In this document: one piece after another, positions 34,201 through 37,058 of the stretch | Layout: every line of letters starts with the position of its first letter | Numbering within the stretch: the stretch's first letter is position 1 | From: Lewinellaceae bacterium | Lineage (GTDB): Bacteria > Bacteroidota > Bacteroidia > Chitinophagales > Saprospiraceae | Direction of reading: 5' to 3' | Length of the DNA: 37,058 bases | NCBI GenBank assembly: GCA_024642625.1 | Contig: JAHEAU010000007.1 | Span: forward strand, 1 to 37,058 | Made by a program: the position numbers and the translations under genes | The notes under the pieces: model-generated | Databases searched by the model: none | Told to the model about the DNA's origin: nothing | The model's input: the letters and a program-made list of their open reading frames with translations, nothing else

Positions 34201-35247
34201 ATGACTGCTCCGCGCGATGACTTATTGATCTTTTCCCCTAAAGGCATCTACTGCTCTGCAGCGGATCTGTATATCGATCCCTGGCGCCGTGTACCCAAAG
34301 CCGTCATCACCCACGGTCACAGTGATCACGCCCGCCCGGGACATGGTCATTATATCTGTACTCCGCTGACAGCCCCAGTACTGAAACACCGATTGGGACA
34401 AAATATCCTGATGTCAGAATTGCCTTTTGGACAACATATCACCATGAATGGTGTCCGGATTTCCCTCCATCCGGCTGGTCATATCCCGGGTTCTGCTCAG
34501 GTTCGTGTGGAGTACAAGGGAGAAGTTTGGGTCGTAACGGGTGATTATAAACTCCATTCAGATCCGATCAGTGAGCCTTTTGAACCGGTTCCTTGTCACA
34601 CCATGATCACCGAGTCGACCTTTGGATTGCCGATTTACCAATGGTCCGACCCAAAGATCATCATCCAGGACATCCACCATTGGTGGCGAGAATGTCAGGA
34701 AAAAGATCAGTTGGCTGTCATGACCGCCTATTCTCTGGGGAAGGCCCAGCGATTGATTGCGGAGTTGGACATCAACCAAGGTCCACTCTTTACACACAAG
34801 AGCATTGAACCCATCAACGAGATCTTTCGTCAGGCCGGACTCCACCTGCCCAAGACCACTCAGGTCAACGAAAGACATCAACGAGAGGACCTCACAGGCG
34901 GATTGCTCATTGCACCACCTTCCGTAATGAACAGCGATTGGTTTCAACGACTTGGGCCCATCTCGGATGCTTTGGCGAGCGGATGGATGTCCCTGCGCAA
35001 AGGCCGCTTCAGGCGGACTGCAGACCGGGGGTTTGCATTGAGTGATCATGCCGATTGGCCTGGCTTGTTGACAGCCATTCGGGAATCAGGGGCCGAGCGT
35101 GTGCTGGTCACCCATGGGTTTACTGCACCATTTGCCCGTTACCTAAGGGAGATCGGGCTGGATGCTCAGGCAGTCGAGACCCGATTTCAGGGAGAGCCTT
35201 CACCTGATGACACAATAGATGAGGACGCTCAAATCCATCCGGCATGA
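34201..35247 (+). CDS. DNA ligase-associated exonuclease (MBL-fold/beta-CASP-like)
   Basis: FSPKGIYCSAADLYIDPWRRVPKAVITHGHSDHARPGHGHYICTPLTA; HPAGHIPGSAQ; VTGDYKLHSDP; ITESTFGLPIYQW; LSDHADWPGL; VTHGF. Catalytic motifs intact. Confidence 0.9.
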   Translation: MTAPRDDLLIFSPKGIYCSAADLYIDPWRRVPKAVITHGHSDHARPGHGHYICTPLTAPVLKHRLGQNILMSELPFGQHITMNGVRISLHPAGHIPGSAQVRVEYKGEVWVVTGDYKLHSDPISEPFEPVPCHTMITESTFGLPIYQWSDPKIIIQDIHHWWRECQEKDQLAVMTAYSLGKAQRLIAELDINQGPLFTHKSIEPINEIFRQAGLHLPKTTQVNERHQREDLTGGLLIAPPSVMNSDWFQRLGPISDALASGWMSLRKGRFRRTADRGFALSDHADWPGLLTAIRESGAERVLVTHGFTAPFARYLREIGLDAQAVETRFQGEPSPDDTIDEDAQIHPA

Positions 35248-36827
35248 AGCAGTTCAATGAATTGATCCGGCAACTGGAGCAACATGCTGAAGGCGAAGGA
35301 AGAGTCAGCACATTGGTCGGGTATTTCAATTCAGCCAGTGATCAGGATACGATTTGGGCTATAGCACTCTTGACCGGGAAACGGCCCAAACGTGTGGTTA
35401 CGATTAATCAGTTATCCATATGGGCCATTGAAAAAACGGGATTTCCTGTGTGGCTTTTCAAGGAAAGCCAACAACAGGTTGGTGATCTGGCAGAGACCAT
35501 TGCTCGTCTATTGCCGCCCCCGGCCGCACGGGAGGAAATACCTCTTGCCGAGTGGATACGATCGATGATTTCGTGGCAGGCATCAGCGTTTGAGGAACAG
35601 CAGGAGTGCATTGCACTGGCCTGGGATCAACTGGAAGCCGATGAGCGATACCTGTTGAACAAGCTGCTGAGCGGAGGCTTTCGCTTGCGTGTGAGTACCG
35701 TCGATCTGATCCGTGCCCTTCAAGAGGTAACTGGGGTGCCCGATCACATCTTGGCCATTCGGCTGGCCGAAAAATGGGATCCCCAGATAATGACCATGAA
35801 TCGATTGATGAGAACAACAACTCTTGAAGTAGATCTGGCGCAACCCTTGTCTTTCCATCTCATTCAGACCTTGAAAAATCCTTGGTCTTCTCTTGGCAAC
35901 CCGGCAGACTGGTGGATGGAGGATCAATGGGAAGGTATACCAATTCAACTTGTTCGCCAGGATGAGACCATCTATTTATGGACGGTTGAGCATCAAATGG
36001 TCACGTCCCTGTTTCCAGAAATTGAAGAGGTGTGTAAGCAGATACCTGAGCAAACGGTATTGGAGGGAATCTTGCTGGTAATGGAGAATGACAGGCCAGC
36101 TACGCAGGACCAAATACAATACAGGATGGATTGTCAGCGAGTTACAAAAAAGATCATGCATGACAAACCAGCATGCTTCATTGTGCATGACTGTTTGGTG
36201 TGGAAGGGGAAGAATATTCAACTGATCCCGTATTTACAACGGCTGCAGCATGTTGAATCCATCTGCACTTCATTGGATACGCCTGTCATACAGTGTACCC
36301 ATGTGAAGGAAGTTGGCTCGGATTGGGCATCGGCGGAAGATCATTTAGCCACAGCTCGGGAACGACATGCAAGTGGCATCATACTCAAACACCGCAATGG
36401 ACACCATAGTGACGAAGAGATCTCGGATGTTTGGTGGACGATGAAGGCGGAACCCTTTCAGTTTGATATGGTCGTTTTGTATGTTGAATCGGGATACAAT
36501 AGATTATCAGGTGCTGATTACGAATTGACATTTGGTCTGTGGGACGCAACCGGGTTTATTCCGGTCACCAAAACTGGTCATGGTTTGTCAACTGAAGATA
36601 TGGATCGGGTTAAGGCCCATGTCAAGGAACATACGGTGGAACGGTTTGGTCCGGTTCGCCAAGTGGTTCCACAGTTGGTATTTACTGTGCAGTTTGATCG
36701 AGTCCTTGGTTCATTTCGCCACAAGAGTGGAATCACCTTGTTGGATTCACGTATTTGCGAATGGAAAGCAGCAAAGGATGTGGCTGACTTATTACCCTTG
36801 TCAGAACTGAAAAAGTGGATCAAATAG
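35244..36827 (+). CDS. Ligase-associated ATP-dependent DNA ligase family protein with degenerate nucleotidyltransferase motifs (candidate pseudo-ligase)
   Basis: Family N-terminus conserved (FKESQQQVGDLAETIARLL; LNKLLSGGFRLRVS) and C-term (ERFGPVRQVVPQLVF..RHKSGITL), but motif I KxDGxR reads QWEGIP; ATGA overlap with exonuclease. Confidence 0.88.
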   Translation: MKQFNELIRQLEQHAEGEGRVSTLVGYFNSASDQDTIWAIALLTGKRPKRVVTINQLSIWAIEKTGFPVWLFKESQQQVGDLAETIARLLPPPAAREEIPLAEWIRSMISWQASAFEEQQECIALAWDQLEADERYLLNKLLSGGFRLRVSTVDLIRALQEVTGVPDHILAIRLAEKWDPQIMTMNRLMRTTTLEVDLAQPLSFHLIQTLKNPWSSLGNPADWWMEDQWEGIPIQLVRQDETIYLWTVEHQMVTSLFPEIEEVCKQIPEQTVLEGILLVMENDRPATQDQIQYRMDCQRVTKKIMHDKPACFIVHDCLVWKGKNIQLIPYLQRLQHVESICTSLDTPVIQCTHVKEVGSDWASAEDHLATARERHASGIILKHRNGHHSDEEISDVWWTMKAEPFQFDMVVLYVESGYNRLSGADYELTFGLWDATGFIPVTKTGHGLSTEDMDRVKAHVKEHTVERFGPVRQVVPQLVFTVQFDRVLGSFRHKSGITLLDSRICEWKAAKDVADLLPLSELKKWIK

Positions 36828-36858
36828 TTTTCGTTTTCTGCTTCGGCGACGGTCCGTA

Positions 36859-36906
36859 TATAAACTCATAAACCTATAAACGAATAAACTCCCTTCATAA
36901 ACTCCC
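36859..36906. repeat. Word-like repeat (ataaactcataaacctataaacgaataaactcccttcataaactccc)
   Basis: Direct reading of repeated ataaac/ataaactccc words. Confidence 0.7.
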
Positions 36907-36961
36907 TCCACAATCAGGATTCCCCGTTCCCCTAGTTCCTTTTATGGAATACACTATCATA

Positions 36962-36985
36962 TTTGACGGAGTAAACGTATCTTTG
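36962..36985 (+). promoter_or_regulatory. Possible Bacteroidota-type promoter for a gene beyond the window
   Basis: TAtcTTTG at 36978-36985; TTTG at 36962 is closer than the usual spacing. Confidence 0.35.
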
Positions 36986-37058
36986 CGCACCAAAAGTGGA
37001 AAACCATTAAAAACTCCACGTATTCACGAGTGTAAGGAAGTTAAGGATGTGACTGATT

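What the first reader, a model, noticed from the sequence alone, without database searches (positions are those of the whole stretch)
35244..36827. Candidate catalytically dead DNA ligase: nucleotidyltransferase motifs I, III, IV and VI look eroded in an intact ORF
In the ligase-associated ATP-dependent ligase family the active site reads roughly W-K-W-D-G-I-R-A-Q, with the lysine taking AMP. Here the aligned segment LGNPADWWMEDQWEGIPIQLVRQDETIYLW has Q (CAA, 35925-35927) for the lysine, E for D and P for R. VLEGILLV replaces the motif III VLDGEIL (E lost), SGIILKHRN replaces EGxMLKRRD (E lost), and the motif VI region (RFPRIxRxRxDK) reads LDSRICEWKAAKD. The N-terminal DNA-binding region and framing blocks remain family-like, and 527 codons stay open, which argues against recent pseudogenization. 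A pseudo-ligase could act as a DNA-binding, nick- or end-sensing scaffold.
Basis: partly seen in the sequence, partly recalled or inferred. Interest (0 to 1): 0.85.

Follow-up and report, generated by a model that had tools for sequence, protein, structure and literature searches.

The report
Dead DNA ligase kept with nuclease
A bacterial DNA-repair ligase has lost nearly every residue it needs to seal DNA, yet the intact gene is still protected by selection beside its active nuclease partner, and the same loss has happened repeatedly in one bacterial family, so the protein probably does a non-sealing job.

Summary
Observation confirmed. ORF 35244-36827 (527 codons) is a full-length relative of the ligase-associated ATP-dependent ligase family (TIGR04120; LigB type). 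The nucleophile lysine is Gln228 (CAA 35925-35927), and 11 of 15 catalytic residues are replaced. Two other species of the genus (74 and 69% identical) share the loss. dN/dS is 0.22-0.26 and below 1 in all three domains. AlphaFold gives an intact three-domain ligase fold (pLDDT 92).

The case is not isolated. Among 108 ligases compared from Saprospiraceae and relatives, 85 keep all 15 residues, one keeps 14, and 22 have lost 2-14; 18 of those lost the lysine. A species tree forces at least 6 changes of state, and five genera hold both live and dead forms.

The partner exonuclease keeps its metal ligands in all 22 of these genomes and usually overlaps the ligase gene. In the window's genus the exonuclease, pseudo-ligase, Lhr helicase and phosphoesterase are present together in three species and absent together in two, from unlinked loci.

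Best reading: a recurrent pseudo-ligase kept as a non-catalytic partner of this repair module, most likely of the exonuclease. The nick-sensing idea is weakened, because several DNA-contact positions were lost too. Binding and function are untested.

The parts
34201..35247 (+). Ligase-associated MBL/beta-CASP exonuclease (TIGR04122), metal ligands intact; the frame is open further upstream to 34090
   Evidence: TIGR04122 455 bits, cut-off 325; THGHSDH, HPAGH, GDYK, THG all present
35244..35247 (+). 4-base overlap (ATGA) of exonuclease stop and pseudo-ligase start, suggesting translational coupling
   Evidence: ORF coordinates
35244..36827 (+). Pseudo-DNA-ligase, 527 aa, TIGR04120-like (LigB type)
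   Evidence: Full-length HMM match 1.6e-98; PF01068 above cut-off; AlphaFold pLDDT 91.9, archaeal ligases and human Lig1 as best structural matches
35244..35840 (+). DNA-binding domain (aa 1-199): 20 of 27 live-invariant positions kept; Gly149 is Arg
35841..36458 (+). Nucleotidyltransferase domain (aa 200-405), catalytically eroded
35916..35948 (+). Motif I, MEDQWEGIPIQ; nucleophile Lys replaced by Gln228 (CAA 35925-35927)
36057..36080 (+). Motif III, VLEGILLV (Glu lost, I276)
36372..36398 (+). Motif IV, SGIILKHRN (Glu lost, S377)
36429..36455 (+). Motif V, VWWTMKAEP (first Lys lost, T399; second Lys kept, K401)
36459..36824 (+). OB domain (aa 406-527); motif VI eroded; net charge 0 against about +5 in live ligases
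36738..36779 (+). Motif VI region, LLDSRICEWKAAKD
36945..37058 (+). Decayed remnant of the congener-type ligase 3' end, continuing into contig C165; not part of the ORF
   Evidence: 79% DNA identity to the 3' ends of the congeners' ligases; overlap with C165 99%

Best explanation
This is a pseudo-ligase: a DNA ligase fold that cannot take AMP from ATP or seal nicks, kept under purifying selection as a non-catalytic component of the Exo / LigB-type ligase / Lhr / MPE repair module. Shown here by sequence: the catalytic residues are gone, the gene is intact and constrained, the loss recurs, and the nuclease active site is kept. Inferred: the protein acts mainly as a structural or positioning partner of the translationally coupled MBL/beta-CASP exonuclease, controlling where or when it trims DNA, while the NAD-dependent ligase LigA, the only other ligase found in the genome, does the sealing.
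For: 11 of 15 catalytic residues lost. Same state in three species with dN/dS 0.22-0.26, upper 95% limit 0.35 overall and below 0.6 in each domain. Exonuclease metal ligands intact in 22 of 22 genomes with eroded ligases. The exonuclease overlaps or lies within 100 bases of the ligase gene in 16 of the 22. Exo, pseudo-ligase, Lhr and MPE are present together in G000-G002 and absent together from G003 and G004, on three separate contigs. Losses occur in place: in genera g30, g81 and g152 the dead and live species have exonucleases that are each other's close or closest kin, with the same gene order. The only other ligase found is LigA. Precedents: LigB-nuclease fusions (PMC10140301); the DNA-binding domain of human ligase IV binds the MBL nuclease Artemis (PMC3664939); catalytically dead ligase IV still promotes repair (PMC9638927).
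Against: No physical or functional interaction is shown. dN/dS is about twice that of the one live pair that could be measured (0.112), so constraint is relaxed. Lhr is missing from 10 of 22 genomes with eroded ligases against 2 of 43 with live ones, and some genomes keep the exonuclease with no ligase match nearby, which also fits a module in slow decline. In G006, G014, G186, G247, G307 and G260 the ligase is not directly beside the exonuclease.
Confidence: 0.55

Rival explanations
1. Slow decay. The ligase was made redundant by LigA and is being lost under relaxed selection, with no function of its own; the intact ORF is a transient stage or avoids polar effects on neighbours.
For: dN/dS about twice that of live ligases; long branches; loss of Lhr is commoner with dead ligases (Fisher p = 0.00015, not corrected for kinship); solo-exonuclease genomes exist; erosion grades from 2 to 14 residues lost.
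Against: dN/dS well below 1 in every domain, including the dead nucleotidyltransferase domain; a simulation of neutral change at 0.18 substitutions per site (half of the smallest dS) gives about 11 stop codons, and none are seen. The dead state is shared across species in g1, g19, g25, g149 and g152, with full-length ORFs.
Confidence: 0.25
2. DNA-binding, nick- or end-sensing scaffold as proposed by the first reader: the protein binds nicks or ends without sealing and recruits or shields.
For: Three-domain fold kept; the DNA-binding domain is the best kept domain (67% of live-invariant positions kept across dead forms); N139, K140, G144 and R147 of its loop mostly kept.
Against: In this protein the basic GRKKG loop is acidic, Gly149 is Arg and OB-domain charge is 0, so encircling a nick as live ligases do looks unlikely.
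Confidence: 0.12
3. Residual or altered catalysis, for example sealing of already adenylylated nicks, or use of another lysine.
For: Plausible only for early-stage forms such as G307 and G260, which lack the Lys and motif IV Glu but keep motifs III, V and most of VI.
Against: In the window protein Lys228, Arg233, Glu276, Glu377, Lys399 and most of motif VI are lost, and residue 228 itself varies (Q or L) within the genus.
Confidence: 0.05
4. Assembly or sequencing artefact, or contamination.
For: The window is one contig of a 371-contig assembly and ends just after the gene.
Against: Same state in two other species' assemblies; the rpsB-tsf-pyrH genes of the same contig group with that genus; contig C165 continues the locus into the same downstream genes as G002.
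Confidence: 0.01

Closest known systems
Ligase-associated ATP-dependent DNA ligase (TIGR04120 / PRK09247, LigB type)
   Same: Full-length homology, same three domains, same upstream exonuclease TIGR04122
   Different: Below both equivalog cut-offs (331 of 400; 389.5 of 543 bits); nucleophile and 10 other catalytic residues lost
Human DNA ligase IV and Artemis
   Same: An ATP-dependent ligase DNA-binding domain paired with an MBL-fold nuclease (PMC3664939); catalytically dead Lig4 retains a repair role (PMC9638927)
   Different: Lig4 is naturally active and inactive forms there are engineered; here inactivity is natural and recurrent, and no complex is shown
LigB fused to an MBL nuclease (Opitutus terrae; Dry Valley metagenomes, PMC10140301)
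   Same: Same two activities brought together in one polypeptide
   Different: There the ligase part tested was active; here the ligase is dead by sequence and the genes are separate
Archaeal DNA ligases (P. furiosus 2cfm, Thermococcus 4eq5)
   Same: Same fold and domain order
   Different: Active enzymes with KYDG motif I

Membership tests
ATP-dependent DNA ligase, TIGR04120 equivalog | Score above curated cut-off (400 bits) | tested here: not met
   331 bits
ATP-dependent DNA ligase, TIGR04120 equivalog | KxDG nucleophile lysine | tested here: not met
   Q228; L in the two congeners
ATP-dependent DNA ligase, TIGR04120 equivalog | Motif III/IV glutamates, both motif V lysines, motif VI Arg/Asp | tested here: not met
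   I276, S377, T399, A510; only K401 and K511 kept
ATP-dependent DNA ligase, TIGR04120 equivalog | DBD-NTase-OB domain architecture and fold | tested here: met
   Full-length HMM alignment, AlphaFold pLDDT 91.9, Foldseek to ligases
ATP-dependent DNA ligase, TIGR04120 equivalog | Nick-sealing and self-adenylylation activity | not testable with these tools
   Needs purified protein
Exo-Lig-Lhr-MPE gene module | Adjacent TIGR04122 exonuclease with intact metal site | tested here: met
Exo-Lig-Lhr-MPE gene module | Lhr helicase (TIGR04121) and phosphoesterase (TIGR04123) in the genome | tested here: met
   Lhr fragment at a contig end in G000, complete in G001 and G002; MPE in all three; not adjacent to the ligase
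Pseudoenzyme | Loss of conserved catalytic residues with fold and purifying selection retained | tested here: met
Pseudoenzyme | Demonstrated non-catalytic function | not testable with these tools
   Needs genetics or biochemistry

The most novel reading that the evidence does not exclude
In Saprospiraceae and relatives the LigB-type ligase has turned repeatedly and independently into a dedicated non-catalytic subunit of its MBL/beta-CASP exonuclease, showing that the main selected role of this poorly understood repair module lies in DNA trimming and assembly, not in sealing.
Probability: 0.4. Interest if true: 0.82.

Novelty: new variant of a known kind. Interest (0 to 1): 0.7.

Why it matters
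DNA ligases are textbook enzymes and naturally dead ones appear to be little described: the literature searches made here found none, though the library held lacks most subscription journals. The damage handled by the Exo-LigB-Lhr-MPE module is unknown (PMC10140301). Natural loss of sealing, with the nuclease site kept every time, is a natural experiment on which part of the module matters. It also warns that gene annotations may call these proteins 'ATP-dependent DNA ligase' although about one in six in the unselected sample lacks the catalytic lysine.

Tried and rejected
A ligase tree to count origins: dead rows have very long branches that attract each other, so it cannot tell one origin from many. 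An exonuclease tree left the base unresolved. A species tree on rpsB, tsf and pyrH was used instead. Expecting the Lhr helicase downstream: the next gene in the genus is rpsA (ribosomal protein S1), and Lhr lies elsewhere. dN/dS in most live pairs was unusable because synonymous sites are saturated. Searches for literature on pseudo-ligases of DNA gave only ubiquitin E3 and unrelated papers. The Ejaz and Shuman 2018 paper on the gene cluster is not held. The assembly-error and migrated-lysine ideas were rejected (see rivals).

Full report
What is there. ORF 35244-36827 on the + strand (527 codons, no stops) starts inside the end of the upstream gene (ATGA overlap). The upstream gene is the ligase-associated exonuclease TIGR04122 (455 bits, cut-off 325). 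The ORF itself matches the family of ligase-associated ATP-dependent ligases over its whole length (TIGR04120 E = 1.6e-98; PRK09247 E = 3e-116) but scores below both curated cut-offs. Pfam's ligase domain is above cut-off. The window is one whole contig (C104) of a 3.6 Mb assembly with 97.6% completeness. Two sister species come from metagenome assemblies named Saprospiraceae and Bacteroidia.

Catalytic residues. I mapped 15 catalytic positions on an alignment of 108 distinct homologues. In the window protein 11 are lost: K228Q, D230E, R233P, R248V, D274E, E276I, E377S, K399T, R500L, R508K and D510A. G231, K382, K401 and K511 remain. Solved archaeal ligases align at the same motif I and no other KxDG exists in the protein.

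It is not a private accident. Two other species of the genus, 74 and 69% identical, carry MEDLFEGIPIQ. dN/dS among the three is 0.22, 0.24 and 0.26 with unsaturated dS of 0.36-0.83; bootstrap 95% limits stay at or below 0.35 overall and below 0.6 in every domain. A simulation of neutral change at 0.18 substitutions per site gives about 11 stop codons. The exonuclease of the same pairs gives 0.11-0.16, and one live ligase pair 0.11, so the pseudo-ligase is constrained but less tightly. AlphaFold2 with 80 aligned homologues gives pLDDT 91.9 and pTM 0.82, and Foldseek returns archaeal ligases and human Lig1.

It recurs. Of the 108 ligases, 85 keep all 15 residues, one lacks one, and 22 lack 2-14. 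Eighteen of the 22 lost the lysine: G000, G001, G002, G006, G008, G014, G028, G038, G144, G168, G170, G171, G191, G247, G249, G260, G288 and G307. Four keep it but lost other motifs: G070, G167, G186 and G195. The second batch fetched was chosen partly for low scores, so 22 of 108 is not a frequency; in the first sample, taken without such a choice, 9 of about 52 lost the lysine. On a species tree from rpsB, tsf and pyrH, well-supported branches force at least 6 changes of the lysine state and 7 for any erosion. Genera g3, g18, g30, g81 and g152 contain both live and eroded forms. In g30, g81 and g152 the exonucleases of eroded and live species are close or closest kin and gene order is the same, so the ligase most likely decayed in place. 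G307 and G260 look like an early stage: Lys to Leu and motif IV Glu lost, the rest nearly canonical.

The nuclease partner stays intact. In all 22 genomes the exonuclease keeps HxHxDH, the PAGH (or PSGH) histidine, the GDYK aspartate and the late HG histidine. In the window's genus, exonuclease, pseudo-ligase, Lhr and MPE are all present in G000, G001 and G002 and all absent from G003 and G004. They lie on three separate contigs, so one deletion is an unlikely cause, though the assemblies are in pieces. In G000 and G014 the Lhr hit is a fragment at a contig end. The genome has no other ATP-dependent ligase, only NAD-dependent LigA.

What argues for decline. Lhr is missing in 10 of 22 genomes with eroded ligases and 2 of 43 with live ones (Fisher p = 0.00015, not corrected for kinship). 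Several genomes have the exonuclease and no ligase match nearby. A graded decline of the module is therefore a serious rival.

DNA binding. Live-invariant positions are kept at 67% in the DNA-binding domain, 57% in the nucleotidyltransferase domain outside the catalytic set, 59% in the OB domain and 40% at catalytic positions, pooled over dead forms. Yet some likely DNA-contact features are gone in most of them, among them Gly149 and the GRKKG loop; in the window protein that loop is acidic and the OB domain has lost its positive charge. Assigning these positions to DNA contact rests on general knowledge of ligase structures. This lowers the nick-sensing reading. A set of positions (W70, L71, E84, W127, G144, Y413, G469-V471, R492, K494, G496) is kept almost everywhere, which would fit a structural core or a partner surface.

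Mechanism. The most likely account, at about 0.55, is a non-catalytic partner of the module, chiefly of the exonuclease. LigB-type ligases are fused to MBL nucleases in some bacteria (PMC10140301), the ligase IV DNA-binding domain binds the MBL nuclease Artemis (PMC3664939), and dead ligase IV still promotes repair (PMC9638927). These are precedents, not tests of this protein.

A remnant at the window's end. After the stop codon come about 120 bases of repeat-like spacer and then a decayed copy of the congener-type ligase 3' end. It is 79% identical to G001 and G002 but barely alignable to the window gene's own 3' end. Contig C165 overlaps the last 186 bases and runs on into rpsA as in G002. 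Codons 391-520 of the window gene are also unusually divergent from its congeners. The 3' end was probably replaced or duplicated by recombination, and a full-length frame was kept.

Noticed in passing
36828-37058, continuing in L208 (contig C165) 1-240: Frame-shifted remnant of the congener-type ligase 3' end after the ORF; codons 391-520 of the ORF are unusually divergent, suggesting a recombined 3' end.
   Followed up: partly
about 36860-36915: AT-rich repeat-like element (ATAAACTC...) with over a dozen partial copies elsewhere in the genome and a few in the congeners.
   Followed up: no
L055 12570-13535 (G014): The whole-genome search reported two in-frame stops within the exonuclease match, and the ligase is separated from it by another ORF on the opposite strand; the 322-aa ORF keeps its metal ligands.
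   Followed up: partly
L080-L087, L089 (G005, G022, G024, G029, G055, G079, G123, G135, G012): Exonuclease TIGR04122 without any ligase match nearby: solo-exonuclease genomes.
   Followed up: partly
L059 7985-9748 (G006): 588-aa protein with only N- and C-terminal ligase similarity and no recognisable motif I, away from the genome's exonuclease: an extreme form.
   Followed up: no
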